From NCBI RefSeq assembly GCF_021134715.1, contig NC_060022.1, positions 253,001-317,000 of the forward strand: DNA of 64,000 nucleotides. The letters are read 5' to 3'. Source of the DNA: Daphnia pulex (Eukaryota > Arthropoda > Branchiopoda > Diplostraca > Daphniidae). Made by a program: the position numbers and the translations under genes. Positions 11,301 to 64,000 of this stretch are shown here, piece by piece; positions within the stretch are counted from its first letter, which is position 1; each line of letters begins with the position of its first letter. The notes under the pieces were generated by a model. The model did not search any database. It was not told the origin of the DNA and saw only the letters and a list, made by a program, of their open reading frames with translations.

Positions 11301-14300
11301 TGCTTCATTATATAACGACGGGTTTGTGTAGCATATCGCCCAACAGCATCAACTCGAGATTTATGGTGGCGCTCGTTTGGCAACAAACGAGCTGGTCACG
11401 TCTATACGATGCGGACGTTTTATAATAAGAACAAACATTTTTTTTTCCTTCTTCTTTTGGGAGGGAAACATTATCATCATTATTTTGGGTTTTTTTTTTG
11501 GTTTTTGACCGAAACGTTTTTGCGGACGAGCGCATCAGCAGAACGCGCAGTAGACGAGAGTCCAGCAGCAGGGATTTTTCGGTTGGAGTCGTAATGATTT
11601 TAATTGTTATTTTCTACCTAGCCAGTCGAGCGTGGGTAAGATAATAGAGTCCGACTCCCACATTCGACAGTTTTGCATTGGTTTGAATGGGTGTAGTCGT
11701 CAAAATAATTTTTTAAAACATTTACCAACTCGAAAAAAAAAAGAAGATTTCACGGTTGATAATTCACGTACTATACAACGACCAGTAGCTTTAAACCAAA
11801 GGAAAGAAAAAAGGAAAATTTTAATGCTGGGACAGTAGGAGCGGGCAACATGACACCGGCGTTATGCGATACGGTAGACGGACCTCTTTTGGGAAGAAAG
11901 AAAGAAATCGAAAGTGTTTTCAAACAATTCAATCCCACAATTCGCAGGTTGTTCTATCCTTTTATTTTCCCCCGTTGTATTATTTTTCACGGACAATATT
12001 GTTGAACGAAAGAAGGTATCCGTGAGCTCGAGTCGAGCAATACAACAGTGAAAGGAAGAGGGTGGCTCGTAAAATAGATGAACAAGTTGGCAAAGAGAGG
12101 CCTATATAGTATAATCAGTAGCATATCGTGTGACCGCCAACGAACATTGCCGGATGTCGTGTTGGACATACATTGCGGGAATATAGTACGGCATCTCTAC
12201 TATGATTGCATATAGAGCCGCCGCGTTGTCTCCCGCTGGTCTTCTCGCCATTTAGAAACACGACAGATACGACCCATTGTATGAGGAGCGAAAAAGAAAC
12301 AAATAAAACAAAACCCAAAAAAAGTATAGAGGCAACAACAGGTGATGTTATATGGCGATATTATAGAAAGGGTCAGTCCGCGTGTGCTGGCTGCGTTCGA
12401 GAAAAAAAAGCGCCTTTCACGCCGCGAGAGTTGCGTAATGCTCAATAGGTAATATTAGAAAGAGAGAATGGACGAAAGTTGTTTTTTGGATCGATGAAGA
12501 CGACCGAAAAGTCAGGACTCTCATCAGCATTAAAAAAAAATAACCAAATTCTTTTTCTCTCCTTTTTTTAAATAAAATTTTTATGGGCAGATGCCGGCCG
12601 GCCGGTCGCGGTCCTTTTTCTTTTCTCTATACGTGTGTGTGTACATGATGGGGCATTCACGATGACTCTCGCCTAGCTAATACTTGGAAATAACATCAAG
12701 AGAGAGAGAGAGAGAAAAAAAGGAACGTCTGCTGCTGTTGGCTGAGACCTTGACACAACCCACGCCCCACTTACATTCGTGAGCTGCAACTATACACCAG
12801 CGTGTTGTTGTGCGTACAGACCATCCCGAGAGAGATGGACAGATGGATGGATGATTCCCATCGATGCCGGGCATACACACACAGAGAGAGCTGGCGTCGG
12901 TTAGTAACGGAATTTCTTCATAACACAGCAGCAGCAGCAGCAGCAGCAGAGTCTATACTTATAATATAGGCTAGTAGGTTCTACGCGACCCGCCGCAGAG
13001 TGCTGGCCCAACACACCGGCGGTTGCCAAACAAACACACACACAATGGTTTTGCATATTCAATATAGCGGAGAAGACGAAGAAGAAAACAAACATGCTCT
13101 TCTAGCGAGAGACATTCAGCAAGAAATTTAACATTTAATTTTTTAGAAAACGTCCTTGTCCTCTGTGTGTGTATGCTGTGTGAAAGAGACGCGTGTCTAC
13201 ATAAATAATACACCTGGGGTATAGGAGTAGTAGTATAGGCCATCTCTGCCCTGCAGGCTGATGCCTGCGCGTATAAGCATTTGATGAAGAAAAAAAAACG
13301 GGACTCGCAATAATAAAACTGGAACGCGCATCACGTTCCCATGCATTCAAAAACATTTTTCTACATATATCTGCGCGTCAAGTGTATACTTAGCTTATTA
13401 CGGTATAAATATCGGCTTTCATTCAATCTAGGCCAAGAGAAGGTGTCAAGTCAACAGAGCCCTAATGAGTGTTGTGTGTGTGTGACCGCGCTCAAGTCGT
13501 ATGGAAAAGACCAACCAAACACACACACAAACGAATAGAAGGAATCCGCTTGTAGATAATAAATTCTCTTCTGAAAAGTCAAGATAGGTAAACACACATA
13601 CACACACACACAATAGCATCAGCAGCTGAAGCTTGAGCAAGAGAGGGGCGCCATCAAATGCACCCAACAGCAGCGGGAGCGCTTTTTCTCTTCTTCTTCT
13701 TCTTTTTTCGTGAATGGAAATTTATGACATCCTTTATGCGTCTCTGCGGGTTTTCGGCATATCATCATCATCATGTGTACAAGCTTATATATATATATAC
13801 GCTTGGCTAATACTAATAGTACACTGAACTGTGTATAATATTTTCGTTAGAAATCATTTGGCTCTTGCAGTTATTACTTGTGCCAAAAGCGCAATTAGAC
13901 CGGTATATTTTAGCCGACGAACGCGCAGAAAATTGAATTTCCCTGGCCACAATCCGGTAGCTTTCAAATGTCAAATTTAAAAAACGGCTATGGTGGGGAT
14001 TAATAGATTACCACGACACTTTAGCCAATCTGAAAAGTCGACCCTTGTATAGTCTACAGATGGAATTATACAGATAGAGCTCAAAAGATTTTATGCTGGG
14101 GGTGGTGATAACTGATAAGAATGTTTCAATGGAGAATTTTCTCCATTGTTCTCTGGCCACCAGAAGATAACCGCGAGGGATAATAATGGCGCGATATGTC
14201 ACTCAAATCAAAATCGTGTTTGAGATTATCCAACAGGATTGACCATCCGTCGCCATCATTATCCAAGGCGGAATTTCTCATACTATTTGTTGTTATTAGG

Positions 14301-44848: not shown

Positions 44849-46759
44849 GAAAAAATCGCAAATTTCCGAGGTTAAAAATAATCAATGCACTCAACTGAAT
44901 TTTCCAAACGAAATTGAAACTATGTTCACTTTCCTACAGCTAGTCGTTGGTTCCGTTCGACTGGGCGAACGACCGACGGCTTTCTGTAGTCATTACTATC
45001 GAAATCACGCCGATGTTATTGCAAACCAGTTTATTCCGTTATTAGTCGGAGAAACCTGAAGTCCATTTTCACTTTTCCCTTCTCTTTTTTTTTAAAGAGG
45101 CGTATCAAAATAGTGTTCAGATTCCATCACATAGGCATTCAAACCAAAACGTATTCATAAAAAAGGGATGTGCGTTCTTATTAGTTACAGTGTAGTGTTA
45201 CAAATGGTGTCGCATAGTCGTTCGTTCCACATTTCACGGAAAATATTAGAGTAACAGCGACGCAAGTTTTAATGCCAATTGCAAACAACTCATTAATGCG
45301 CAATAAGTTTTTTAAATTCACCGTTATTGAAGGTTATGCAGAGCGTGTCCGTCCGTTAAATCGTTAACGGTTCAGTAAACCTTTTACTCAAATGCCCCAC
45401 CCTAGATGGCGAAGTCGTCGAGCCCTCTGCCCCTCTCGCGGCAGTCATGGGAAATTGTTGTCGGAAGTGGACCTTCTTTGTTCTTTCTTTACCTTTAAAC
45501 AAATATGGCGGGCAGACCAGCAGACCACCTTGCATGGTGTCGGAGTGCAGTGGGCTGTCGGAGTGTCGGGTATGAGGTGAATTACCAGTTTACCACTTAC
45601 AATTAGTAATCTTAGTTATGAGACACTTACCAATAGAAATAGTGTCTTAAGTAGCTGGAGTGTGGATTGTGGTCGGAGAGAAGAACAGTTTTAATCAATT
45701 ACTTAATTAAGAATTGTTGAATTTCATCTAATGAATAGTGTAGTAACAATTGAAGTTAAGAAATTAAAATCTTTGAATAATTAAGAAGCTGCTATTAATA
45801 ATTTTTCCCTTTATTCTTTTTATGTTTCAGGGTTTCAGATGTAGAACATTTTGTTGTTTTAGCCAGAATAATGGGAGTAACAATGGTGAAGCAAATATAG
45901 GAGAACAGGTATTGCTTTCAACTTCTTATATATCTGATGGCGAAAGTTGCTGAATATTTGTTAAGTTAACAGTTTAAGTGTGTGAAGTGGACAGAGGAAA
46001 AAGGGCACTGTATTTTGAGAGGACATAAACATACAGTTACAAGGAGATTTTGTGTTGGAATTTATTGGTAGTTAAAACATGGTTAAACATGTGTGAGCTG
46101 CCAAACTCAAAGTTAACTTCTACAGAAATTTTTCTTAAATTGATTAACCACTGAAGCCTTATTGTCTCTTTATAGCATCTGATTGTGTGTAAGGTCTTTT
46201 TAGATACTAATTAAATTTTTTATGAAAGATATAGAAAGATGTAGGGAACTGTTAGCATATCTTCTTCAAGAAAAAAAGTGCAATTCAAGTAAGAATCTTA
46301 GGTAGAATTGTTATTTATTTGTTCCAACTCCTCAACAAACAAAAGAATGATTAAAATGAAATAAAAATTGGTTTTTTGTAAGGTTGTGTGTGTACATGTT
46401 TTTTTTTTTTTTTTTTAATATTTACTGAATATTTTAATGGAATTCCTCATTTGTTTCCTCATACTCTGTAATATTTCGATAGGAAATCTGGAAGAAATCG
46501 GTGGTGGTGGTTGGTGTGAAGAAACTATTGCCCTGGAGTGCTGTAAGATGTTGTAGTAGTGGTACTACTCAAGCTGTCCATCAATTCTAACAGTTGATTA
46601 GAGTTTTGGCCACGACAAAATTTGAAGAGGCCCCATCCAATCTGAACCAAGAAATTGAGACAGGTAGCAACCAATATAGTTGACAAAAGAATGTGAAGGT
46701 ACATACAATAAAACTACTTTGTATTTGTTATAAAGCACGCTAATATTTCGTTATAATTT
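44849..46759. other. Intergenic, AT-rich
   Basis: No gene supported. A CTAGATGGCG element lies near 45403-45412, and a long T tract lies at 46400-46418. Confidence 0.35.
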
Positions 46760-47520
46760 AGGCACCAGCCAATCTCATCGTGAATTTTGCTTATCTTTTT
46801 GATGCCTTTAAAATGATCGCTAGTGTTGAGAAAGAAGGAAAATCTGAACCCAAAGTAAAGCTTGAAGAACCATCTGCTACCGGTATACCAATAACCAACG
46901 GAACTTATTCCATGCGCTCCAAGCCGGCATTATTATGGCGTGCTCTTGCAGACTCATGACAATGACTTACGACGGTTCTGGTGGAGTCATCAAGGAGGAA
47001 AGCAGTGGTAACCCACACCAAATCAAAATCCTTCACCAACCGACATCATTTTCAAGTTCGGCATGGAAGGCCGGCATCTGTTTGCGGTATGTAAGAGCAT
47101 GGCGTCTGAAGAGACATCGTAAAGGTTACTTGTTCAAGTTCCCTTAAGCAAACCTTTATTACTTCCATATCCCAGACCAATTGCCTAAAGTACCAGGTAA
47201 TGATAAACAATTTTATTTCTTTTCAAATCCATATCTAAAGAACATTTTATTCTTTTCAACAGCAGATCTAGAAACCCAAAGTTGATGAAATTTGTCTTGA
47301 GGATTAATTGAGTTCTACAGTATCACGACGAAAAGCATCTAGCACGATGTCGTTTAAGACTTCCCATTGGCCAGACCTCTGTTCAGAATGTCTCGGTTTT
47401 CCACGCAAACGACATCAAATCGTTGAGCGAATTATCTTTGAAAGTTCGAACACTCTGTGCATGTCCCGCTGAGAAGAAATGGTGACTAAAGCCGGCAGCC
47501 TAGGCAGAGACAGTAAAATT
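46760..47520 (+). pseudogene. Decayed coding exons, unidentified
   Basis: Two stretches read like real protein but are broken. At 46760-46960 an open frame gives APANLIVNFAYLFDAFKM, an acidic Lys/Glu linker and SMRSKPALLWRALADS before a TGA. At 47320-47490 a frame gives QYHDEKHLARCRLRLPIGQT and SLKVRTLCACPAEKKW before a TGA. Intervening sequence has stops in every frame. LCACP recalls the CACP of the p53-family DNA-binding domain, but the rest does not align, so I do not assign it. It lies just outside the left arm of the inverted repeat. Confidence 0.3.
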
Positions 47521-48042
47521 GGACAAGGAATTCAACCCATCTCGTCCACGATTGCGTAAACGCAAGGTACTATTTTGCATTATAACAAGAGGAAGGAAAA
47601 AGCTGCTGCTAATACGACCACCTCATCTTTCTCGACTTAAGGGCCACTAGATACGTTGGGACTGGAGGTAAACCGAAATCTAAGACCATGAAGAAACTTA
47701 ATGCTTATTCCTAATAGCAATTGCGCTCACTACGTAATTCTCTAACCCATCACTAAAGAACACCACTCCTGCAACACAAACGAATGTTGTTCAACTCAAT
47801 TGGTGTTTACGCAGCCGGGACAACTGGAATTCCCATGGGTCGGCGTATTTATCACCATTCATTCACCACCATAAATGGTAAAACATATTTTAGGTTGATC
47901 GCGCAATGATGAGTTCAGCTTCGGGACCCCTACCTGGCTGTACTAATTGCTCTCCATTGCCTCCGCCACTCCAGTAATTATTAAAATTAAAATCTCTCGC
48001 GTGCCAGACCGCAACAATTTTAATTCATTTCCTTACACAGAT

Positions 48043-48640
48043 CAATGTCTTCTGGAAAATACAGTATCGCTTCACTGAGATGTATACTTTGACGTTCCAA
48101 TGGCAAACTTAAAAGGAAATGTGACGATTCGAACGTTGTGATTCGTTCACAGGACAAAGAAATATTAACGTTACCTCCGCAGTTTGAAGGTATCTATTGC
48201 ACATGTTATTTGCATGAATTACTATGAAAAGGTGTTATCTCATTCAGCATTTTTACCTGTAGAATTTCGATCCCAATTCTCAGCGGGTACCAGGTGGTTG
48301 GTCAGCTAAACGGCGGCTAAGCGTGTCCGGATGATAATCAGATGTTGCTGGATGAATGAGACGTTGTGACCATCTCCAAATTCGTGGTAGATCATCATTC
48401 AGCTCAATGTACTCCGGATCGGTTGCTATCAGTAACTGTTATAGACGATTTACTTTTCGTGTCCAATGGACTTGGTTTCTCAACAGAAGTTGTTTTCCTA
48501 ATGAAATAACACGTTTAATGGTCCGTAATATTAAAATAATTATCAATTTTAGTCGTGTGACACCTGCCGAAGTGAAGGACACGAAAATGCAATATGCAAA
48601 ACATAACGAAACGCATTTCGACTTCCAGTGCTGGTGAAAT
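48043..48640 (-). pseudogene. Decayed spliced coding sequence in the left arm
   Basis: Read on the minus strand: an exon with IELNDDLPRIWRWSQRLIH and TSDYHPDTLSRRL, broken soon after in this copy (ADQPPGTR then stop), then an intron-like GTAAAA to AATAG stretch, then an open frame with NVNISLSCERITTFESS and LPLERQSIHLSEAILYFPED. A stop (TAA) interrupts the first exon in both arms. The family is not recognised. Confidence 0.35.
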
Positions 48641-50077
48641 TTAAAGTTAAAAAAAACAAAACAATTTCTATTACAAACTTCTCAGAAGTTGGGTGTAACG
48701 AAAAGTCCCTCAAAGTAACATTTTTCTTTATAAATTGAAATAGTAGATCTCATTAAACATTGAAAAATTCATTTCTAGGAAGTATGTAAGCTTATTCTTC
48801 ACCTGGAAGCATCCAAAGTTCTTCAAGGTCTAGGCTGCGTTAAACGTTGTTGGCTCAGCCTCTCCAGCGGAAACCTACTATGACTAATTGCTCCCTAGTA
48901 AAACTGGCCTCGCTCTCTTCTTCCTTCTTCAGGTAATCTCCCTGAGCACAATGAAACAAGGCATAGTCTCCCCTGTCTTGATTGACCGAACTGTGCAAGG
49001 AAATTTCATATTGATAAAATTAATATATTGAAGGTAAAATATAAACATGTATGATGAGGGATGATAAAAATATTTATAAAAAAGTGTCAATAAGATTGTC
49101 AGCAGTTAATTTTCTTTATGATATTTTTAAAATATAGTGCTGTATAAATATCTTCAACATCCCAACACATGATCTGTTGCTTTCTTCATTTTTTTCCATT
49201 TTCATAACATACTGCACTAATCAATTAAATTAAACACAAGACCCATAATTTTATTTGATGGCAGGGGGCCTGTTGCTTTCCCAACCGCGATTATAACACA
49301 ACGTCATTATTTGTTTGGTGCATAAGGTTTCTTGATCTAGCAGTTTTCAATTGAAGCACTCCTAGATCATGTAAGATCAGGTTACCTCAATCGTAAATGC
49401 ATGGATGAGATTTGAGTGACAGAGATGGGAGAGATTTGACATGACAGACAAATTAATGAACAACACATTGAACTGTGACACCAAAGACAGCAGCAGCAGC
49501 AACAACTTTAAGCACACCTTTCGACATCTCTTCATTAGGCAGCATCTCCATTAACAGCCTGAACATCAACGGCCATTGAAACCTACAGAGAAAAATAAAG
49601 ATTCATCACAAGTAAGGCAAAGTGCAGAATAACAGGAATGAAGTTAAAAGTCGAAGTGATATTTTGTCAACAATCTGGAATCACTAAAAGATGCCATAGA
49701 CAGGGCACAGAAACGAATGTCAACTGTTAAGCTGCCTTCTCATTATACTACCTTTTAGGGATTTTGTCTGTTGTGATATGTGATGCTGCAGTGGAGACTT
49801 TTTGGTGAAGACGAGATATAAATTTGGAGAGGAGTATATGCCGTGAGTATCGAAGTTAATTGCCTTTGTTTGTTCCTTCTTTCAATTGAGTGTCAACGAG
49901 CTAGAGCGGACATTGTTTTCATGTAAAAGTTTCTTTTTTCTGACGCTAGACGTCATAGCCTTTGATAATTTTACACTCAGTTTAATAACGTTTACTTTGC
50001 ACATCTCTGAAGAAATTTCTCGCTGCTACTAAAAGAAACTTTTGTGTGATAGCTGTCAGTTTCTGTTTCAGCAACAA

Positions 50078-50457
50078 AGCTCACTTGTTAGTTTTTAATA
50101 ATAATGTCCTTTTTTTCTACTTCCGGTTTTCTTATTTCAGTCAGTAGTTTAGTAAATATTTATTTGACGCACAAAAGAACCACATATTCGTGATCCTCGT
50201 CAAATTTGTGGTAAAGTTCATGTTTTTTTTTGTACGTACGCGTACTTCCGGTTTCGAACATTTTCCTGAACTATAGTTCAGGAAAATTCTCGATTTTGGC
50301 CAAATTTTGGATTTCGTTTAAATCACACTTAATCGACCCCAAATTTCATGGAGATCACAAATATATGGTTTAATTTGATGGCAGCTCAATGGTTAAGGTG
50401 CTGTGGCTTACTTCCGGTATACTTCCGGAAAATTTGCATAAAACTAGCAAGTGAGCT
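50078..50457. mobile_element. MITE-like element, 380 bases, left-arm copy
   Basis: Ends are AGCTCACTTGTTAGTTTT and the reverse complement of AGCTCACTTGCTAGTTTT, 17 of 18 bases alike. Inside are four ACTTCCGG motifs arranged roughly symmetrically and a perfect 26-base palindrome at 50261-50286. No coding capacity. The mirror copy is at 61582-61961. Confidence 0.5.
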
Positions 50458-50698
50458 CTGTTTTCTGTACAGTTCTAAGGATTGAATGCTAGGTTTTAGC
50501 AAACAAATATGAACTTTTCAAGTTTTGTGAGTATCTTAAGACCAGTCCTTCAAATATTGAGTTTTGAGACGTGTTAAATAGATGGCGTGTTGATTGTGTC
50601 AGTTATGGAATGGCGGTTTGCTGTCAAAAGTTTCTTCGAAAATTACCAATGAATTCATAGGTAAATTCAAGTGATTTCGTCTCTAACTTGTCGGTGAT

Positions 50699-50893
50699 GT
50701 GTTCTATTCCGTGTATATGTTGGATAACCTTAATGTTTCTCATCAACTTACAGGAGGAAATGTGAAAGGTCGTGGTCGTCGTGCAGCCTACCGTCAACTA
50801 TTTTGTTCAAAATCATTGTATTCTACTGAATGTGCCATTGAAATGATACAGGTAATAACCAACTCTAGCTTTATGCATTTCATGTATTGCTGA
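50699..50893 (+). other. Coding-like exon in the left arm
   Basis: An acceptor (TTACAG) near 50753 and a donor (ATACAG|GTAATA) at about 50851 bracket a stretch reading GNVKGRGRRAAYRQLFCSKS. An upstream piece near 50610-50662 starts ATGGCGGTTTGC but hits an in-frame TAG at a GTAAAT donor. It could be a noncoding transcript or a pseudogene. Mirrored at 61146-61340. Confidence 0.2.
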
Positions 50894-51854
50894 AACATAT
50901 TCTTCTCGTCTTTTATTAGGAGTCATAATTATCTGCTGTTTGTATTGGACTTGCTAGATCACCAACCCCAGGCCCCCAGCATAGACCAATCTCTCATTTC
51001 ATCTTCTCGAGAGAAGATTGGATAACTGATTGGTGGTTTTATGTGTAAGTTCACTTATCATGTCACTGAACTATTTCCATTGCAGTCTAATATGTATTTA
51101 AAGTATTGATCTCCACTTACGTCTATCGTCTAATGTTTAAGAGACACTTTTGAGTGTATACTGATAATTGTTTATTCTTTTAGATCACATTGATGACACA
51201 AATTATAAACAATGTGACCTTTTTTTATATACAGGTTCTAAACTCCAGGTTTCTAAATTTGCATGGCAGACTTTATGAAAAGTCCTCCTATCAAGAAAGT
51301 CAACAAGGTCCCTTGTTTACTAACCTGTTGGCTGCTACCTTTGAATCTCCCTTTTTACTTTCTAAAGCGGGCATCTTTACTTGAGGTATTGCTTTCTGTC
51401 GCTACAATCTTGTTTGAATATTATTGCCATCCAAATAAATGTTCATTATGCTTACAGGGTAATCCTTCGCTACTGATCATGGACTTCATCCACTGGTGAA
51501 AACCGACAAGTGAATGCTGTAATTCAAGACTGATAAATTGTGTAGTTAATTAGATAAAATTATCAGTGCATATCTGGGCTCCCTTCTTTTCTGTGGCCCC
51601 GTTTCCCTAACTAACCACTAACCAACGCCCGCCGGTGGTCACTCACCCGCTGTGAAACCAGGAGGAGGGGAGGGCTCTGGTCGAACGGGGACTTGGAAGG
51701 CGCATGATCCGATGAAAACTTTTGGAGGGTCATGAGTCTAACCCGGAAGCCTAGTATGACTACATCTCCCCGGAAAAAACTTGCCTCGTACTTCTCTCTT
51801 CTTCTCGGTCCAGATAAATATCTCTGGGGGCCGTAGACATATCCTATAACAGCA

Positions 51855-52296
51855 TGTGCGAGTTAAACAAAGCAACCCACTACCCAATGAAACAAAAAGC
51901 CATGGTTTATTATTTGCGCAAATCTCCGTCAGTCAAGTTACAAATTTTTCTAATTCAACAACTCGCGTAAAATTTTGCATCTAGTCTATTAGTGCAAATC
52001 GCGATTCCATCATGTGTTTGGTAGTTAAGAAAATGGTTGTTTAAAAAACAAACAATGGGGTGTTCTGTGTAGCCAAAAAAACTCACCATTGTTTGTTTGT
52101 TTTTTAAACAACCATCTTCTTAACTACCAATCACATAGGATCGCTATTTGCACCAGTAGATTAGATGCAAAATTCGACAGAAGTTGTTGAGTTTGAAAAA
52201 TTTGTAACTTGACTGACGCAGATTTCCGCAAAACTAAACCATCGCTTTTTGTCTCATTGCCGCAGCGGTGGTGGCGGGTTGCGTTTAACTCGTACA
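51855..52296. repeat. Foldback element (about 440 bases), left-arm copy
   Basis: An imperfect inverted repeat: TGTGCGAGTTAAAC, CAATGAAACAAAAAGCCATGG and GGTTGTTTAAAAAACAAAC on one side return in reverse complement on the other, around a loop near 52057-52085. No coding capacity. The mirror copy is at 59743-60184. Confidence 0.55.
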
Positions 52297-52957
52297 GTAG
52301 AAAAACATCTTGAACCGGACGCTCTATTTATTGAATTTTTTGAACATTATAACAAGAAAATAAAAAAATGGGTTCATATAATATATTTATTTTTATTTAT
52401 TACAGATATTACATGGTTAAGGTTTAACATTGGTTTATAGGGTTAAGGGTATAAATTTAAGGGTTAGTGGTGTATGTTTTCGGGGTTTGAAGGATTGGAA
52501 GGTATATGTTTGTGGGGTTTGGAGATTAATTGGTAGGGCAACATTTGTAGGGTTATAGATTAACAGATTTTTTATCCAAACTTGAAATATCCTCCCCCTC
52601 TCCAACATCCTCCACTTTCCTTTCCCAATCCCGAAAACATGTTTATTATTTGTTGACATAAATATCCCATATTTGTTTTTGTTGCTTCTTAACTTCTTAA
52701 CGGTAAACTGCAGTCACGATGACAATTTAACAAAATAATGATACAATTTCGGTAACACGACACCAGCAGTCCAGCACCAAGGAACGGCTAATTGAATTTG
52801 ATGCAGAAAGATCTATCACCAGCAGAGGCTGAAACAACGTACCACAGCGGACAGCAACAACGCGAACAAACACGATAAACCTGTAACCATAATGAAATGA
52901 ATTAATTTTCAGCATCAATGGAAATGCTGTCAATGAAAAGATGAATAAATGTCACTT

Positions 52958-53975
52958 TATATGGTTTTAGTTATACCAAATATTCGGAAAACAATATCTG
53001 ATAGCTATTGTTCAAACAAAAACAAAATGTGCGATTTAGATTGCAACAACGAATATGTTATGTTAATCCTGCTTTAAAAAAAAATTAGTTACTATCAAGC
53101 AATGAATTCTCATGCGACGATAACAAAAATGACACAAGTACAGCTAAACATCTCTCATTGTCAGTTAGCGAGCTTTTTGAAACCTCCAGACAATAAGAAG
53201 GTTGATTGAAATAATTACTTCAGTTGTTCATTTTTCTTCATTTGACGAAACACACAGCAGTACAGGTAGCAAGAGGAACACCTGGCTGCATTAAATCCAT
53301 GTGTACATTGGCAGCAACGACGAAGCTCAGACTTTCCCAGACTGTTAATCACAAAAAAAAACTCAATTACTATCAAGGACACAAGCATCTCAAATGACAA
53401 AAACAAAAATGACAGAAGTTAAAGTTAACTACACAATCCTTCAGAAAAAACGTTGCAAAGGAACCTACAGCTAGCAAGCTTTTCCAAGGTAGACAACTAA
53501 AGTTCTATGACAGGCAAGTTAAGACATAGTCAGTAGTCACCAACTAACTAAGTCTCACAGTTAGAAAATTCAACATATTTACCTGATTTGTTCTGAAGTG
53601 ATTCTTACAAACAGCCGGTACAGGAAAAAGAGACGACATCTTGGCAAAATTTACAGATGCTCAGGTTCTGCTCAGGCCACATGATCAGCTGGAATTTCCA
53701 AGTAGAAATTATAGGCTAGGTTACCACACAAATTACTAAATTCACACACAAATAATTAGGATTCAGTAACATCTAACAATCAAAACGGGAAATACCATTT
53801 TTATGAAGAAAAATGTGAGGAAGGAAAATACGCCGTACGGATACGGATAACGATACGCTTTCAATCAGTGCTCGAATAAAAATGGCGGCTGTCTTTCGTA
53901 ACGAAGACTTATTGTTCCATATCAGTAGTTGTAAATGTGAATCATAGATGGCGATGAATTTTTTATGTTAGTCTG
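52958..53975. other. Left inner spacer of the palindrome
   Basis: Not part of the near-identical arm, but about 53225-53345 is a diverged reverse-complement relative of units at 58215-58345 and 58605-58735. AAAATGGCGGC near 53880 matches the YY1 consensus. No coding gene seen. Confidence 0.4.
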
Positions 53976-53984
53976 CTAAAGAAG
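53976..53984 (+). repeat. Target-site duplication, left copy
   Basis: CTAAAGAAG immediately precedes the 3.77-kb element and is repeated exactly at 57755-57763. Confidence 0.65.
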
Positions 53985-53991
53985 GGATAGC

Positions 53992-54439
53992 GACATTGGG
54001 ACTAATAACCACAAGGACTAATCGAATGCGTCACTAGAACGCGACACTAGAACGTCCTTCCGACACTAGAACGTCCACATTTTAGCCACGACATTAGAAC
54101 GGAAAAACCTCTAAATTCCGCTGCGACACTAGAACGTCCACATTTAAGTAACGACAATAGGACGGAAAACCTCTAAATTTCTCTGCGACAGTAGAACGGA
54201 TTTAGCGACATAAGAACTTGGGGAATGATTCTTTGCCGCTAGATGTATTTCGAATGCGTCACTAGAACGCCCACCCGACTCTAGAACGTCCATATTTAAG
54301 CGACGAAACTAGAACGGGAAAAACTATTGCGACACTAAAACGGCTATAATAAAATAAGGTGGGGTTTCATTCTTTACCGCTAGATGTAGGAGATGTATAA
54401 AGTTTCCGATTAGGTTGCGCGAATTTTAAAACATCGAAT
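53992..54439 (+). repeat. Left terminal inverted repeat with motif array
   Basis: It starts GACATTGGGACTAATAACC and ends AAAACATCGAAT. About 54030-54350 holds roughly a dozen copies of a GACACTAGAACG-like motif spaced 15-40 bases, several followed by TCCACATTTAAG. Confidence 0.8.
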
Positions 54440-55049
54440 GGATGGATTGGTACAGCTAACTCGCAGCTAGAGCTAACAGAGAAAAAAGACAGGATAAGAA
54501 CGGCAAAGTATAGCGAATCTTATATTTTAATCCCTAAATAGACTAGAACGGATAGGGGTAGGGATAGGGGAAACTATGAACGAAAATCGGTCTTGGAAAA
54601 AAAAACGCAGTCTTCAATTACTCCATTACAAAAAAAAATTCACTAACTTTTGCTTCTGCAATCCTTAAGAAAGCTGCGTTGCTCTTTGAGGTATGCAAAC
54701 GCCGCAAAAATACCGTGCGGTACACAATCTTATTCCTGAAATTGTAACCGAATTCAGTGTTAGAAATTTTGAATTCTCTGCGATTCTCTGTAATGCCGTA
54801 TCTATCTGACACACTAAATTGCTCCACCAGGAATGAGTGACTCCCACAGGGGGATTTCCAGATATTTGTAAACAGAATTTGTCAACATTTGAAAAGAATA
54901 GTCCCTCGCCATCAGTTTTCATGATGTGTAATCCGGCGAATTATGAAAACTCGCCGGACAATTGCAAGCATCATTCCTTCAATCTGGTTATAAACCTAAA
55001 TGCTCTGCAGGGTTGTCGTTCTTGTTATTACTGTTTTCTTACACATTCT

Positions 55050-55337
55050 TCATGATAAAATGACGTGCTCGATGAACTGCGTATGTGATTTGTTAACTAC
55101 AACCTGACCAGTGTGATAAAAAAACTTTTCCACGAGTGCCTTAATTTGGTCAAAGAGGATAGGGTACATAGCAGCCTGGGCCATTTCGTGGCCTACTAGT
55201 TCCTTGATGTTTCTGGATTTGAGCACCAAATTTGTCGTTGACGCACAACAACAGCCGCAGAATGTGTCCCACGAATGAAGTAACCGGGCAGTACTGATTA
55301 TATTATCTTGCATTTGACTTAAATTGTTCGCCACAAG
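55050..55337 (-). CDS. Second coding segment of the element, 3' part of a reading frame
   Basis: It follows a good acceptor (TTTTTAATGCAG) and reads 95 codons to a TGA. Visible features are QMQDNIISTARLLHSWDTF, a CGCCC cluster, KELVGHEMAQAAMYPILFD and VVVNKSHTQFIEHVIL. Composition is clearly protein-like. I could not connect it in phase to the upstream six-exon frame, which ends at a TAA at 55721. It may be a separate gene, an alternative 3' end, or the remains of a longer transposase broken by mutation. A further open frame at 54618-54830 is possible but ambiguous. Confidence 0.4.
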   Translation of the reverse strand, partial: LVANNLSQMQDNIISTARLLHSWDTFCGCCCASTTNLVLKSRNIKELVGHEMAQAAMYPILFDQIKALVEKFFYHTGQVVVNKSHTQFIEHVILS

Positions 55338-55720
55338 CTGCATTAAAAACAAGAGTTAATCAACATCGTTTAAATTAGTTGTGAGCTTTAAAGAAATTAC
55401 GTTTGATTTCCGGTCAATTACTCCGCCTGAAGGGGTAGACGTCGATGATAAAATCGATCGGGGAGAGCGTCATCGCATATACAAACGTCTCCGAGCGCAC
55501 AAAGGAAGCCCGTCACGTTAGCCCACTCGTTGACTTGATCCTAGTTTGAGTAACAGTGTAATAAACATGCCTCGGGTATTTTCCCAACAAAAAAAAAAAC
55601 AACCCTCAAGTTCCATTCGTGTTCCGTGCTCTAATGAGATGCTCTCCGGTTGCCGGCTGATCGGTGAAAAGATTCATTGGTTTGCCCTTCTTCCGGCAGG
55701 CGAGCTTTCGGATCAGTTCC

Positions 55721-57251
55721 TTAATTGTAGACGTGGTAATCAACGATTGCGGCCATTAACAGCTCGGCGAAGATAGAACTGGAGGGAAAGTGAACTACCG
55801 ATGGGTGTGCGGACAATTAATGGGAGGGATGAAGAAGATAGGAAAAAAAACGGGTTGGGTTGAAAAAAATGAGAAGCATAATACATTAGTGGAGCTAGAC
55901 TATAACATACCATCGATAGCGCCAAATGTAATAGTGTATAGCTCGCTGTTTTTTTTTTAACAGCCTCCGCTATCTTTATTACGTAAGCCAGTTTGAATAA
56001 TTTACATTTCTATAGACTATAGATGCGCTGGGCGATTTTGTGTGCAAAAAACCAAGCTCTTTAATGATTTCGCTATTGAATCTGTGCGAAACTATAGAGA
56101 CGATAGCTTGGGTTTCGTTTTCCCATGTCGATAAAAAGTCAAAGATTCTTTTTTTTTTATCGCGTTATTTTATTCGATTTTATTAACATAATCGATTGTT
56201 GGCGTTGAGCAGATAAGCACAGACCCGGATATAGAAACCTCCCACGCTCCTTGAACACAAATAATAAGAGAGAGTCATCACAGCCAAATTGGTATACATA
56301 AAGCTTCTTATCTTCTCATTACTTGAGATGTTTTTCTTCTTCATCTTCGGTGCTGAATAAATCGTCAAACCCAGTGTTGTTTACCTTCTTACGTATCTTC
56401 GTCCCATGCTGGCGCGTTTTTTCTATAATATTACATGCGCTGCACACAGTGATAAGTGTTGGTATACTGTGTATGGTTTATATTACGCGCGACAGCCAAC
56501 ACTATGGTCCTTCAAGAAAGGAGGGGATGAACATGACGTAACGCCTCAATTAAGTATTCAGCGTGATGCGGATAATCCAAAGCGCCTTCCGCACCGCTTC
56601 AAATATACAAAAGCGACGACACCTTGTTCTATTTTATTTATTTCGACCTGCTGTGGAAATCGCGGTGGGAACAGAACTTCAACATTCCGGTCGCTAATTA
56701 ATTCAAAGACATCATCGCCTCTCTGTATACCTTACGACCTTACGGCACACAGCCTTTGATAGTATAAGAACTAGGGCCGACATCTAGATCACTTTAGATT
56801 CCTTTTATTATTCTCATACCTCTTCCTTTATGTAATATAGGACGCAGAGTTGCCGCAGGATCTTGTATAACCGAAAGTTGGAAGCTCCAAAACTCATGTC
56901 CTCTTTGCTCGCAAATTTACAGCAGCTCCCGCGTCCGGCACTTGTTTTCCCCCCCTTTCAACGCCCTTATATTGGCAAGCCATCTTTTATTAGGATATTG
57001 AATAAATTATTATATGTGCTACAAAAAGGGGAAGAGTCAGCATTTCGGAGCTGGGATTTTCGACTATAAATGAAAATGCGAATAACTGTCAAAGTGTCAA
57101 TGGGCATCATCGGAGACGAAAGCCAAAAAAAGAGAAGAAGACTCACCGTTCCAACTGGCAAACATTTTATCTTCGAAATGAAGACATGGTCTTCTTGACG
57201 GGCCTCCCGCATTTGATAAGGCAGTCTCGAGCAATGGCTGCAACTCTCCAT
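55721..57251 (-). CDS. Six-exon gene inside the transposon, about 220 residues, family unknown
   Basis: Exons 57251-57147, 56954-56820, 56722-56623, 56422-56323, 56147-55983 and 55778-55721 have GT-AG borders, fit in phase and total 663 bases ending in TAA. The N terminus has clustered cysteines (MESCSHCSRLPYQM, KIKCLPVG, GSCCKF). The middle has FRLYKILRQLCVLYYIKEE and DDVFELISDRNVEVLFPP, then a basic stretch (KTRQHGTKIRKKVNN) and an acidic one (FSTEDEEEKHL). The C-terminal part has WENETQAIVSIVSHRFN and SIFAELLMAAIVDYHVYN. The exon 3 donor is the least certain choice. The protein is short for a transposase, so it may be an accessory or captured protein, or a truncated form. The start lies 46 bases inside the right terminal repeat, which could hold its promoter. 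Confidence 0.45.
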
Positions 57252-57296
57252 TCGAGCGGAAATGTTATTTATACCCTTGTGGTATGCAGATGTAGT

Positions 57297-57746
57297 ATTC
57301 GATGTTTTAAAATTCGCGCAACCTAATCGGAAACTTTATACATCTCCTACATCTAGCGGTAAAGAATGAAACCCCACCGCAGATTTTATTATAGCCGTTC
57401 TAGTGTCGCAATAGTTTTTCCCGTTCTAGTTTCGTCGCTTAAATATGGACGTTCTAGAGTCGGGTGGGCGTTCTAGTGACGCATTCGAAATACATCTAGC
57501 GGCAAAGAATCATTCCCCAAGTTCTTATGTCGCTAAATCCGTTCTACTGTCGCAGAGAAATTTAGAGGTTTTCCGTCCTATTGTCGTTACTTAAATGTGG
57601 ACGTTCTAGTGTCGCAGCGGAATTTAGAGGTTTTTCCGTTCTAATGTCGTGGCTAAAATGTGGACGTTCTAGTGTCGGAAGGACGTTCTAGTGTCGCGTT
57701 CTAGTGACGCATTCGATTAGTCCTTGTGGTTATTAGTCCCAATGTC
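57297..57746 (-). repeat. Right terminal inverted repeat with motif array
   Basis: This is the reverse complement of 53992-54439 with a few small differences, such as CCCCACCGCAGATTTT against the left-side AAAATAAGGTGGGG. The motif array occupies about 57390-57710. Confidence 0.8.
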
Positions 57747-57754
57747 TACATGCC

Positions 57755-57763
57755 CTAAAGAAG
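57755..57763 (+). repeat. Target-site duplication, right copy
   Basis: CTAAAGAAG, identical to 53976-53984 and in direct orientation. Confidence 0.65.
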
Positions 57764-59081
57764 AAGAGCTCTTACTCTTAGTTTTATCGATTGCTCAATC
57801 GTAGTTCGTAGCCTCGTAGGATCCTCCCGTCCTTCAACAATGTGGTTAAAACAAAGCAGGCAATGTTCTAAATGTTTGAAATAGCCCAGGACTATCCTGA
57901 AGAGGGTTCAACAACATAAAAAATCATATATATCAAGTTAAGAGGAAACATTTTCATCTCTTTCCAAATCCATATCTAATGAAATTTTATTGACTTTTGC
58001 AGATATGACAACACTTAAGATGAAGAATTTAGCCCTAACTGTTGATGTGGAGTTGGTGCTAATTTGCTGCCATTCCCTTTCGTGATGTTTTCAATGTCAA
58101 GTAATGCACATTAATAGCTGGACGCTGACAAATTGTCACTCACACCTGAGGTAATTTTGCAGTTAACTGTTGTGATGAGCATTTAACTCAATGAATCGTT
58201 TTTTTTTCATATATTTCTTAGAACAGGCTGGTGAATTCTGAGCTTCCTTGTGTCAGTCCAATATGTGCTATGTGCAAATGGGTTTGTTAAAGCCAGCCGG
58301 TGATAGGTGCTCTTCTTGCTACCTGTACCAGCTGTATGTTTCATATCGTAAAAAACACTGAACAGAATGAACTGAACTTCAGAAGAATGAAGGTAATTAT
58401 GTTGAACAGCTTTCTAACTTGAATGCTACTGATATTATTAGTTGATGACTAGTTCTTTGCTGATGTTTGCTTTTTATGATGGTAATATCATTCATTCTGT
58501 TAAGTGTTTTTGTATGACACACTTCAGAACAATGAAAAAAACTTATCTTCTCTAACTATGCTGTCACTTACTGTTTTCTGTTGGTATTTTTTTTTTCTTA
58601 ATAGGATTAACAGCCTGGTGAAGTATGAGCTTCTTTGTTGCTGCCCAATGTTCACACGGATTTGACATAAGCGGCAGGTAAAGGTGGTTTTTCTCTTGCT
58701 TCCTGTGCTGCTGTGTGCTCAGTCCCTTGAAGAAACACTTAAGAACTATTGAAGTAATTATTTTAATAAATTTTTAAATTGTATTTCTCATTAAAGCTAG
58801 TCAACTGTAGATTCTTTTGTTACAGTTCTAAGAATAGTTCTGAGAGCACGTGTAGTTAAGCTATACTTGTCATTTTTGTGAGAATAACATCAGAATTAAT
58901 TCCTCAATAGTAATTAGTTTTTACAAGCATGATTAACAGCTAGTTGAAGTCTTGTCTTCACCTTCTTCTCCGTTCCAGTCTTATTCACACATGGATTTTT
59001 TCAGTCAGAATTTTGAATTTGACATGTACAATTTTCTTAATGGTAAGCTAATGATTTGTGATAACTCTTGTAAATAACATT
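57764..59081 (+). repeat. Right inner spacer with diverged tandem units
   Basis: Related segments begin near 58225 (CTGGTGAATTCTGAGCTTCC), 58611 (CTGGTGAAGTATGAGCTTC) and 58937 (AGCTAGTTGAAGTCTTGTC), roughly 330-390 bases apart. Each is followed by an ACACATGG- or ACACGG-like segment and a GCTTCCTGTGCTGCTG-like segment. One unit is mirrored, diverged, in the left spacer. No coding sequence seen. Confidence 0.4.
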
Positions 59082-59742
59082 AAGTGACATTTATTCATCT
59101 TTTCATTGACAGCATTTCCATTGATGCTGAAAATTAATTCATTTCATTATGGTTACAGGTTTATCGTGTTTGTTCGCGTTGTTGCTGTCCGCTGTGGTAC
59201 GTTGTTTCAGCCTCTGCTGGTGATAGATCTTTCTGCATCAAATTCAATTAGCCGTTCCTTGGTGCTGGACTGCTGGTGTCGTGTTACCGAAATTGCATCA
59301 TTATTTTGTTAAATTGTCATCGTGACTGCAGTTTACCGTTAAGAAGTTAAGAAGCAACAAAAACAAATATGGGATATTTATGTCAACAAATAATAAACAT
59401 GTTTTCGGGATTGGGAAAGGAAAGTGGAGGATGTTGGAGAGGGGGAGGATATTTCAAGTTTGGATAAAAAATCTGTTAATCTATAACCCTACAAATGTTG
59501 CCCTACCAATTAATCTCCAAACCCCACAAACATATACCTTCCAATCCTTCAAACCCCGAAAACATACACCACTAACCCTTAAATTTATACCCTTAACCCT
59601 ATAAACCAATGTTAAACCTTAACCATGTAATATCTGTAATAAATAAAAATAAATATATTATATGAACCCATTTTTTTATTTTCTTGTTATAATGTTCAAA
59701 AAATTCAATAAATAGAGCGTCCGGTTCAAGATGTTTTTCTAC

Positions 59743-60184
59743 TGTACGAGTTAAACGCAACCCGCCACCACCGCTGCGGCAATGAGACAAAAAGCGATGG
59801 TTTAGTTTTGCGGAAATCTGCGTCAGTCAAGTTACAAATTTTTCAAACTCAACAACTTCTGTCGAATTTTGCATCTAATCTACTGGTGCAAATAGCGATC
59901 CTATGTGATTGGTAGTTAAGAAGATGGTTGTTTAAAAAACAAACAAACAATGGTGAGTTTTTTTGGCTACACAGAACACCCCATTGTTTGTTTTTTAAAC
60001 AACCATTTTCTTAACTACCAAACACATGATGGAATCGCGATTTGCACTAATAGACTAGATGCAAAATTTTACGCGAGTTGTTGAATTAGAAAAATTTGTA
60101 ACTTGACTGACGGAGATTTGCGCAAATAATAAACCATGGCTTTTTGTTTCATTGGGTAGTGGGTTGCTTTGTTTAACTCGCACA
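59743..60184. repeat. Foldback element, right-arm copy
   Basis: Mirror image of 51855-52296. Confidence 0.55.
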
Positions 60185-61581
60185 TGCTGTTATAGGATAT
60201 GTCTACGGCCCCCAGAGATATTTATCTGGACCGAGAAGAAGAGAGAAGTACGAGGCAAGTTTTTTCCGGGGAGATGTAGTCATACTAGGCTTCCGGGTTA
60301 GACTCATGACCCTCCAAAAGTTTTCATCGGATCATGCGCCTTCCAAGTCCCCGTTCGACCAGAGCCCTCCCCTCCTCCTGGTTTCACAGCGGGTGAGTGA
60401 CCACCGGCGGGCGTTGGTTAGTGGTTAGTTAGGGAAACGGGGCCACAGAAAAGAAGGGAGCCCAGATATGCACTGATAATTTTATCTAATTAACTACACA
60501 ATTTATCAGTCTTGAATTACAGCATTCACTTGTCGGTTTTCACCAGTGGATGAAGTCCATGATCAGTAGCGAAGGATTACCCTGTAAGCATAATGAACAT
60601 TTATTTGGATGGCAATAATATTCAAACAAGATTGTAGCGACAGAAAGCAATACCTCAAGTAAAGATGCCCGCTTTAGAAAGTAAAAAGGGAGATTCAAAG
60701 GTAGCAGCCAACAGGTTAGTAAACAAGGGACCTTGTTGACTTTCTTGATAGGAGGACTTTTCATAAAGTCTGCCATGCAAATTTAGAAACCTGGAGTTTA
60801 GAACCTGTATATAAAAAAAGGTCACATTGTTTATAATTTGTGTCATCAATGTGATCTAAAAGAATAAACAATTATCAGTATACACTCAAAAGTGTCTCTT
60901 AAACATTAGACGATAGACGTAAGTGGAGATCAATACTTTAAATACATATTAGACTGCAATGGAAATAGTTCAGTGACATGATAAGTGAACTTACACATAA
61001 AACCACCAATCAGTTATCCAATCTTCTCTCGAGAAGATGAAATGAGAGATTGGTCTATGCTGGGGGCCTGGGGTTGGTGATCTAGCAAGTCCAATACAAA
61101 CAGCAGATAATTATGACTCCTAATAAAAGACGAGAAGAATATGTTTCAGCAATACATGAAATGCATAAAGCTAGAGTTGGTTATTACCTGTATCATTTCA
61201 ATGGCACATTCAGTAGAATACAATGATTTTGAACAAAATAGTTGACGGTAGGCTGCACGACGACCACGACCTTTCACATTTCCTCCTGTAAGTTGATGAG
61301 AAACATTAAGGTTATCCAACATATACACGGAATAGAACACATCACCGACAAGTTAGAGACGAAATCACTTGAATTTACCTATGAATTCATTGGTAATTTT
61401 CGAAGAAACTTTTGACAGCAAACCGCCATTCCATAACTGACACAATCAACACGCCATCTATTTAACACGTCTCAAAACTCAATATTTGAAGGACTGGTCT
61501 TAAGATACTCACAAAACTTGAAAAGTTCATATTTGTTTGCTAAAACCTAGCATTCAATCCTTAGAACTGTACAGAAAACAG

Positions 61582-61961
61582 AGCTCACTTGCTAGTTTTA
61601 TGCAAATTTTCCGGAAGTATACCGGAAGTAAGCCACAGCACCTTAACCATTGAGCTGCCATCAAATTAAACCATATATTTGTGATCTCCATGAAATTTGG
61701 GGTCGATTAAGTGTGATTTAAACGAAATCCAAAATTTGGCCAAAATCGAGAATTTTCCTGAACTATAGTTCAGGAAAATGTTCGAAACCGGAAGTACGCG
61801 TACGTACAAAAAAAAACATGAACTTTACCACAAATTTGACGAGGATCACGAATATGTGGTTCTTTTGTGCGTCAAATAAATATTTACTAAACTACTGACT
61901 GAAATAAGAAAACCGGAAGTAGAAAAAAAGGACATTATTATTAAAAACTAACAAGTGAGCT
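61582..61961. mobile_element. MITE-like element, right-arm copy
   Basis: Mirror image of 50078-50457, including the 26-base palindrome at 61753-61778. Confidence 0.5.
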
Positions 61962-63398
61962 TTGTTGCTGAAACAGAAACTGACAGCTATCACACAAAAG
62001 TTTCTTTTAGTAGCAGCGAGAAATTTCTTCAGAGATGTGCAAAGTAAACGTTATTAAACTGAGTGTAAAATTATCAAAGGCTATGACGTCTAGCGTCAGA
62101 AAAAAGAAACTTTTACATGAAAACAATGTCCGCTCTAGCTCGTTGACACTCAATTGAAAGAAGGAACAAACAAAGGCAATTAACTTCGATACTCACGGCA
62201 TATACTCCTCTCCAAATTTATATCTCGTCTTCACCAAAAAGTCTCCACTGCAGCATCACATATCACAACAGACAAAATCCCTAAAAGGTAGTATAATGAG
62301 AAGGCAGCTTAACAGTTGACATTCGTTTCTGTGCCCTGTCTATGGCATCTTTTAGTGATTCCAGATTGTTGACAAAATATCACTTCGACTTTTAACTTCA
62401 TTCCTGTTATTCTGCACTTTGCCTTACTTGTGATGAATCTTTATTTTTCTCTGTAGGTTTCAATGGCCGTTGATGTTCAGGCTGTTAATGGAGATGCTGC
62501 CTAATGAAGAGATGTCGAAAGGTGTGCTTAAAGTTGTTGCTGCTGCTGCTGTCTTTGGTGTCACAGTTCAATGTGTTGTTCATTAATTTGTCTGTCATGT
62601 CAAATCTCTCCCATCTCTGTCACTCAAATCTCATCCATGCATTTACGATTGAGGTAACCTGATCTTACATGATCTAGGAGTGCTTCAATTGAAAACTGCT
62701 AGATCAAGAAACCTTATGCACCAAACAAATAATGACGTTGTGTTATAATCGCGGTTGGGAAAGCAACAGGCCCCCTGCCATCAAATAAAATTATGGGTCT
62801 TGTGTTTAATTTAATTGATTAGTGCAGTATGTTATGAAAATGGAAAAAAATGAAGAAAGCAACAGATCATGTGTTGGGATGTTGAAGATATTTATACAGC
62901 ACTATATTTTAAAAATATCATAAAGAAAATTAACTGCTGACAATCTTATTGACACTTTTTTATAAATATTTTTATCATCCCTCATCATACATGTTTATAT
63001 TTTACCTTCAATATATTAATTTTATCAATATGAAATTTCCTTGCACAGTTCGGTCAATCAAGACAGGGGAGACTATGCCTTGTTTCATTGTGCTCAGGGA
63101 GATTACCTGAAGAAGGAAGAAGAGAGCGAGGCCAGTTTTACTAGGGAGCAATTAGTCATAGTAGGTTTCCGCTGGAGAGGCTGAGCCAACAACGTTTAAC
63201 GCAGCCTAGACCTTGAAGAACTTTGGATGCTTCCAGGTGAAGAATAAGCTTACATACTTCCTAGAAATGAATTTTTCAATGTTTAATGAGATCTACTATT
63301 TCAATTTATAAAGAAAAATGTTACTTTGAGGGACTTTTCGTTACACCCAACTTCTGAGAAGTTTGTAATAGAAATTGTTTTGTTTTTTTTAACTTTAA

Positions 63399-64000
63399 AT
63401 TTCACCAGCACTGGAAGTCGAAATGCGTTTCGTTATGTTTTGCATATTGCATTTTCGTGTCCTTCACTTCGGCAGGTGTCACACGACTAAAATTGATAAT
63501 TATTTTAATATTACGGACCATTAAACGTGTTATTTCATTAGGAAAACAACTTCTGTTGAGAAACCAAGTCCATTGGACACGAAAAGTAAATCGTCTATAA
63601 CAGTTACTGATAGCAACCGATCCGGAGTACATTGAGCTGAATGATGATCTACCACGAATTTGGAGATGGTCACAACGTCTCATTCATCCAGCAACATCTG
63701 ATTATCATCCGGACACGCTTAGCCGCCGTTTAGTTGACCAAACGACCGCCAGTCTACCCGCTGAGAATTGGGATCAAAATTCTACAGGTAAAACTGCTGA
63801 ATGAGATCACACCTTTTCATAGTAATTCATGAAACAATGTAACATGTGCAATAGATACCTTCGGACTGCGGAGGTTAATATTTCTTTGTCCTGTGAACGA
63901 ATCACAACGTTCGAATCGTCACATTTCCTTTTAAGTTTGCCATTGGAACGTCAAAGTATACATCTCAGTGAAGCGATACTGTATTTTCCAGAAGACATTG
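63399..64000 (+). pseudogene. Decayed spliced coding sequence in the right arm
   Basis: This is the counterpart of 48043-48640. In this copy the IWRWSQRLIH exon stays open longer (LVDQTTASLPAENWDQNST up to a GTAAAA donor), while the next exon lacks four bases (GTTA) relative to the left copy and is shifted out of frame. The shared internal TAA shows that the sequence was already broken before the arms diverged here. Confidence 0.35.

What the first reader, a model, noticed from the sequence alone, without database searches (positions are those of the whole stretch)
48043..64000. Giant, nearly perfect inverted repeat with at least 4.9-kb arms
Paired positions sum to 112039 over 4.6 kb with no net indel, and six separate reading frames recur identically or with one change on the opposite strand. 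Arms this long and this similar mean a very recent inverted duplication, ongoing arm-to-arm gene conversion, or a haplotype-joining assembly error. If real, it is a candidate hairpin or cruciform-forming rearrangement hotspot.
Basis: seen in the sequence. Interest (0 to 1): 0.85.

Follow-up and report, generated by a model that had tools for sequence, protein, structure and literature searches.

The report
Gene-converted palindrome family in Daphnia
This stretch is a real mirror-image duplication in what looks like a water-flea genome, one of a family of related mirror-image loci whose two halves seem to keep copying themselves onto each other, at one relative even carrying part of a neighbouring gene along.

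Summary
The inverted repeat is real and longer than reported. Arms 46406-52960 and 59079-65650 (just past the window) share an identical run of 4,437 bp, fading outward to 97-99%, then 85-90%. The 6.1-kb spacer holds a separate Mutator-like insertion with a 9-bp target duplication. The genome (133.19 Mb, 13 contigs) is probably Daphnia pulex. The locus belongs to a dispersed family: a 26-bp noncoding word from the arm occurs 315 times (up to 3 mismatches; control 0), and exact copies within 12 kb of each other (contigs C2-C8) lie in the same inverted arrangement in 22 of 23 cases.

In 10 of 11 two-armed loci read, the two arms are each other's closest relatives. Yet four loci share the same two-part spacer, so that palindrome is older than those loci. 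[quoted passage not shown] Recent duplication and assembly error fit poorly, though no reads could be checked.

How the family spreads, and why one noncoding module stays almost invariant, is unknown.

The parts
46406..52960 (+). Left arm (48043-52960 is the part first reported; 46406-48042 pairs with sequence beyond the window end)
59079..64000 (-). Right arm, inverted copy; continues past the window to 65650 in window numbering (C6:318650)
52961..53984 (+). Left spacer half: older inner part of the inverted repeat, now strongly diverged from 57755-59078
   Evidence: shared with C4, C6:216k and C6:360k loci
57755..59078 (-). Right spacer half, diverged partner of 52961-53984
53985..57754 (.). 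Separate insertion in the spacer with 450-bp inverted ends (53992-54439 / 57297-57746, 98.9%) and 9-bp target duplication CTAAAGAAG (53976-53984 and 57755-57763); Mutator-like by these features (class recalled)
   Evidence: empty site with one copy of the target at C6:216k and C6:360k
51566..51854 (+). Near-invariant noncoding module, left copy
51855..52296 (+). Long imperfect hairpin next to the module, left copy (core 51885-52259)
60185..60473 (-). Near-invariant noncoding module, right copy
   Evidence: mirror of the left copy
59743..60184 (-). Long imperfect hairpin, right copy
   Evidence: mirror of the left copy

Best explanation
An old palindrome, one member of a dispersed family of palindromic loci, whose arms are kept alike by repeated arm-to-arm gene conversion. 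Shown by sequence: arms of one locus are more alike than arms of different loci although the palindrome predates at least four of those loci; identity is patchy, with edges at different places in different loci. Inferred: the inverted arms pair and one is copied into the other; copying can run past the shared part into one flank and replace the opposite flank, so that the palindrome lengthens, once duplicating most of a neighbouring gene without its start; an occasional crossover flips the spacer. How the unit reached different gene neighbourhoods is not resolved.
For: Tree of 22 arms from 11 two-armed loci: left and right are sisters in 10 of 11. Window, C4, C6:216k and C6:360k share the same two unlike spacer halves. 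Mismatches are patchy: 4.4 kb identical then 2% then 10-15% in the window; in C3:11748k the middle 2 kb identical but 65 differences in the innermost 500 bp. Three-way comparison with C6:216k: outermost 500 bp of the left arm has 73 private differences against 15 (right arm) and 9 (216k); inward the two window arms nearly agree, which reads as a right-to-left tract. C4's right arm carries left-type sequence to 53507, so its inner edge lies 0.55 kb further in. Spacer inverted relative to the shared right flank between window and C6:216k. C6:1129k: 9.35-kb arms, 99.78%; a gene with ERAP1_C matches mirrored on both arms, the right copy cut at the arm edge inside the first coding frame, and window-type flank starting 8 bases beyond that edge; the C3:11.75-Mb relative has the gene match only on the left.
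Against: No reads, other individuals or other species were compared, so conversion is inferred from one assembly. At C6:216k the right arm groups with the window arms, not with its own left arm (support 84/83). Only 4 of the 11 two-armed loci clearly share both spacer halves, so for the others independent origin is less excluded. Not every locus is two-armed: C6:1000-1012k has one arm. Direction of the tract rests on one comparison locus.
Confidence: 0.78

Rival explanations
1. The unit is a non-autonomous DNA transposon with giant terminal inverted repeats (foldback-like). Arms match because each copy arrived recently as a unit, or because transposition homogenises them. It need not exclude conversion afterwards.
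For: Related copies lie in different gene neighbourhoods on many contigs; the inverted arrangement is constant (22 of 23; 19 of 19); some pairs are nearly the same distance apart (positions).
Against: Arm ends differ from locus to locus and outer arms fall into unlike types; no target duplication seen by eye at the arm edges of four loci; no transposase among Pfam matches of 77 window ORF pieces and 86 of 119 listed pieces from other loci; ages differ within one arm.
Confidence: 0.14
2. A very recent inverted duplication made this palindrome, independently of the others.
For: A 4,437-bp identical run.
Against: Outer arm 85-90% identical, inner continuation strongly diverged; the same spacer halves at three other loci.
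Confidence: 0.04
3. Assembly artefact: two haplotypes or read ends joined head to head.
For: No reads available here; very long identical arms are hard to assemble.
Against: Arms differ by indels and by 10-15% at their outer ends; the spacer holds an insertion whose empty site exists elsewhere; the architecture recurs at ten other loci with identities from 91.6 to 99.9%.
Confidence: 0.04

Closest known systems
Arm-to-arm converting palindromes of mammalian sex chromosomes (human Y P6, PMC3723533; primate X, PMC8981503; abstract openings seen in search listings)
   Same: Long inverted arms near or above 99% identity; conversion tracts; occasional inversions
   Different: Here a repeat family of many loci on at least ten contigs; no sex chromosome identified; arms of this member hold no recognised gene
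Maintained inverted repeats of Caenorhabditis (PMC1803023; abstract and Discussion read)
   Same: Long near-perfect inverted repeats (99.7% in one case) in an invertebrate, with gene conversion proposed; gene pairs in the arms, as at C6:1129k
   Different: There separate gene pairs with intergenic repeats compared between species; here one dispersed noncoding family, one species, no orthologues examined
Foldback and other long-TIR transposons (for example Tetris, PMC4079207, and Tm1, PMC3169594; listing only)
   Same: Dispersed units with long, partly repetitive inverted arms
   Different: No constant termini, target duplication or transposase found
Mutator superfamily of D. pulex (PMC2884549, passages), for the spacer insertion only
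   Same: 9-bp target duplication and long inverted ends (criteria recalled)
   Different: No transposase domain recognised; not compared with the published families

Membership tests
Gene-converting palindrome | Long inverted arms near or above 99% identity | tested here: met
   (window, inner 4.9 kb); 5 of the other 10 two-armed loci at 99% or more, C6:1321k at 98.98%
Gene-converting palindrome | Arms of one locus more alike than arms of loci sharing the same ancestral palindrome | tested here: met
   (10 of 11; exception C6:216k)
Gene-converting palindrome | Patchy identity with tract edges | tested here: met
Gene-converting palindrome | Ongoing conversion seen between individuals or generations | not testable with these tools
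   one assembly only
Foldback-like long-TIR transposon | Same terminal sequence at each copy | tested here: not met
Foldback-like long-TIR transposon | Target-site duplication at the ends | tested here: inconclusive
   none seen by eye at the arm edges of four loci; true unit ends unknown
Foldback-like long-TIR transposon | Transposase or autonomous partner | tested here: inconclusive
   no transposase match; partner elsewhere not sought
Mutator-like element (spacer insertion) | About 9-bp target duplication and long inverted ends | tested here: met
Mutator-like element (spacer insertion) | Mutator transposase | tested here: not met
   no Pfam match in ORF pieces of 54-57.7 kb; could be non-autonomous
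Structured hairpin RNA gene | Unusually stable fold | tested here: met
   z -18.75 against 20 shuffles (module plus hairpin)
Structured hairpin RNA gene | Compensatory changes in the stem | tested here: not met
   14 distinct full-length copies: 0 two-sided, 13 one-sided kept, 46 broken cells; little variation, low power
Structured hairpin RNA gene | Transcription or small RNAs | not testable with these tools
   no expression data

The most novel reading that the evidence does not exclude
The palindromes are maintained chromosome elements. Paired, inverted, near-invariant noncoding modules, set roughly every 100 kb along certain chromosome regions and above all on C6, act as DNA-level anchors such as domain boundaries, homologue-pairing sites or replication landmarks; the surrounding arms repair themselves by conversion, which protects the module and now and then duplicates a neighbouring gene.
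Probability: 0.1. Interest if true: 0.88.

Novelty: new variant of a known kind. Interest (0 to 1): 0.62.

Why it matters
Self-converting palindromes are best known from sex chromosomes. A family of related loci on several chromosomes, each at a different stage, lets the life history of a palindrome be read: conversion, outward spread, spacer flip, gene duplication and decay. One relative (C6:1129k) suggests how spreading can give a neighbouring gene a mirror copy without its start. The near-invariant noncoding module (an 88-bp word exact in 83 places) beside faster-changing arms is an open question that can be tested in a laboratory animal with mutation-accumulation lines.

Tried and rejected
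Protein-coding arms: no Pfam match in 77 ORF pieces of the window. A 106-aa stop-free frame across the module is open in eight loci but shifted in the window and in a diverged copy while the DNA stays conserved, and substitutions show no three-base rhythm.

Known RNA: nothing at Rfam gathering level and no tRNA by ARAGORN with the bacterial code; with relaxed thresholds seven weak matches, four of them microRNA-like hits on the hairpin, all below their gathering scores. The module alone folds no better than shuffles (z 0.39 and 0.27); module plus hairpin does (z -18.75), but without compensatory change.

Spliced-leader RNA as a taxon marker: uninformative, the control rang nowhere either. Virus link: no exact match of the 26-bp word in viral contigs.

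Segmental array of about 100-kb units: window 8000-14000 matched only itself; no other interval stretch was tested.

Regular spacing, kept only as a lead: 22 loci on C6 below 2.3 Mb, collected by hand, have a smallest interval of 50 kb (4e-5 of 50,000 simulations) but a weaker CV signal (0.56, p 0.014). Exact-match loci alone: 20 loci, CV 0.53, p 0.00125; sub-region 0.69-2.3 Mb CV 0.27, 0 of 20,000. The regions were chosen after looking, the lists are incomplete, one interval is 335 kb, and closer loci exist elsewhere (C3, 16 kb).

Full report
What was checked. Self-comparison of the window finds 48043-52960 against 64000-59079 at 99.5%, with a gapless inner pair of 4,670 nt; the longest identical run is 4,437 bp. 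The window is C6:253001-317000 of a 133.19-Mb genome in 13 contigs. Contig C13 carries nad2-, cox1- and cox2-like frames; I recognise the cox1 protein as Daphnia from memory. One paper gives 133.2 Mb for D. pulex and names the assembly KAP4, GCF_021134715.1 (PMC12926508, passages). D. pulex is therefore probable, not proven.

Extent. Past 64000 the arms run on to 46406-52960 / 59079-65650 (6.6 kb, 97.5%), with a last faint pair 45351-45459 / 66419-66521. Per 250 bp from the inner edge, identity is 99.2% in the first bin, 100% in the next 17, 97-99% in six, then about 90% and 85%. Inside the perfect edge the two spacer halves still align as an old inverted repeat. With D. pulex rates of 2.30-4.53e-9 per site per generation (cited in PMC12926508), a 4,437-bp identical run would gain one expected difference in about 25,000-49,000 generations, with a 95% bound of about 75,000-147,000.

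Spacer. 53985-57754 is a separate insertion with 450-bp inverted ends and the 9-bp duplication CTAAAGAAG; the C6:216k and C6:360k loci show the empty site with one copy. Without it the spacer is about 2.3 kb.

A family. The stretch 52000-54000 has many matches, densest on C6 (125 matches from the 40 candidates scored of 383). A 26-bp word from the arm matches 315 places with up to 3 mismatches, control 0; only the first 100 are listed. An 88-bp word is exact in 83 places on C2-C11, none on C1 or C12. On C2-C8, 96 exact 26-mers form 73 loci; 22 loci hold two or more exact copies, and 22 of 23 neighbours within 12 kb are left-plus, right-minus, one is plus-plus. With the 88-mer it is 19 of 19. 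The other loci show one exact copy; whether a diverged partner exists was not checked for most. C6:1000-1012k truly has one arm.

Twelve loci were read at length, eleven two-armed. Arm identities: window 99.5% (inner 4.9 kb; 97.5% over 6.6 kb); C4:2.01 Mb 99.49%; C6:690k 99.91%; C6:1129k 99.78% (9.35-kb arms, 367-bp spacer); C6:1321k 98.98%; C3:199k 97.2%; C3:699k and C3:1042k 99.87% (both cut by the fetched ends); C3:11748k 95.6%; C6:216k 95.2%; C6:360k 91.6%. Between eight loci the core is 89-99% identical. The first 10 kb of C6 were also fetched and gave no match.

Conversion rather than recent duplication. In the maximum-likelihood tree of 22 arms, left and right are sisters in 10 of 11 loci; at C6:216k the right arm groups with the window arms. 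Window, C4, C6:216k and C6:360k have the same two unlike spacer halves between their arms, so these four descend from one palindrome and their arms were homogenised later. The clean stretch lies at different places in different loci; in C3:11748k the middle 2 kb are identical while the innermost 500 bp have 65 differences. Against C6:216k the outermost 500 bp of the window's left arm are the odd one out (73 private differences against 15 and 9); inward of about 46.9 kb the window arms nearly agree and 216k is mostly the odd one, which reads as a right-to-left tract. At C4 the right arm carries left-type sequence to 53507. Between window and C6:216k the spacer is inverted relative to the shared right flank, as a crossover between arms would do.

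Outward spread over a gene. At C6:1129001-1157000 ERAP1_C matches lie at C6:1135819-1136124 and 1136469-1136753, mirrored at 1150587-1150892 and 1149958-1150242. I read the gene as an M1-type aminopeptidase (recalled; only ERAP1_C was matched). The left arm begins inside its first coding frame, so the right copy lacks the gene start. Eight bases beyond the right arm edge begins sequence 68-75% similar to the window's outer arm and flank, 65325-66262. The C3:11.75-Mb relative has the gene match only on the left. The simplest reading is that left arm and flank were copied onto the right and replaced what was there; this is inference.

The conserved module. Across eight loci the 100-bp bins from 51563 to 52262 are 97.8-99.9% identical, against 77-97% for the other bins; with four C3 loci added, 51601-51850 stays at 97-100%. 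It is not coding, has no Rfam match at gathering level and does not fold specially alone. The adjoining hairpin is strong, but all four C3 loci lack its middle and it shows no compensatory change. A DNA-level role and homogenisation between loci are both open.

Surroundings. Left of the palindrome are ordinary-looking genes, named from the frames by recall and not searched: collagen-like (20.0-21.8 kb), ionotropic-receptor-like (25.5-26.0 kb), Kunitz-type (31.6-44.8 kb) and GPCR-like (41.3-42.5 kb). Flanks of other loci carry other genes (ankyrin, AAA_33 and SAP domain matches), so the family sits in different neighbourhoods.

Novelty. Searches on Daphnia with palindromes, inverted repeats, gene conversion, foldback elements, concerted evolution and hairpin repeats listed no title or abstract opening that describes this family; the library holds open-licence papers only and I looked inside three: PMC12926508 (passages), PMC1803023 (abstract, Discussion) and PMC2884549 (passages). 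I rate it a new variant of a known kind.

Noticed in passing
window 53985-57754: Mutator-like insertion in the palindrome spacer with 9-bp target duplication and empty sites at two relatives; no transposase recognised.
   Followed up: partly
C6:1129001-1157000 (L041, L033, L018, L032, L042): Palindrome with 9.35-kb arms and a 367-bp spacer that holds mirror copies of an aminopeptidase-like gene, the right one without its start.
   Followed up: partly
C6, first 2.3 Mb: Family loci lie at fairly even distances of about 50-170 kb, with one gap of 335 kb; chosen after looking.
   Followed up: partly
contigs C1 and C12: No exact 88-bp word on C1 or C12, while C6 has by far the most copies for its length.
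   Followed up: no
L022 (C6:1000001-1010000) and the loci at C6:690k, 1129k and 1321k: The inner arm edge carries head-to-tail copies of a unit of about 390 bp (window 53351-53726) in varying number.
   Followed up: no
C6:216001-234000 (L016 and L017 joined), 12833-13056: A diverged copy (81%) of the conserved module without the hairpin, in the outer arm.
   Followed up: no
C9:1336130-1364747: Five copies of a 680-bp piece of the outer arm with equal scores, two on one strand and three on the other.
   Followed up: no
C11:6254056-6254226 and C3:12924026-12924100: Short cox1 fragments in nuclear contigs, perhaps nuclear copies of mitochondrial DNA.
   Followed up: no
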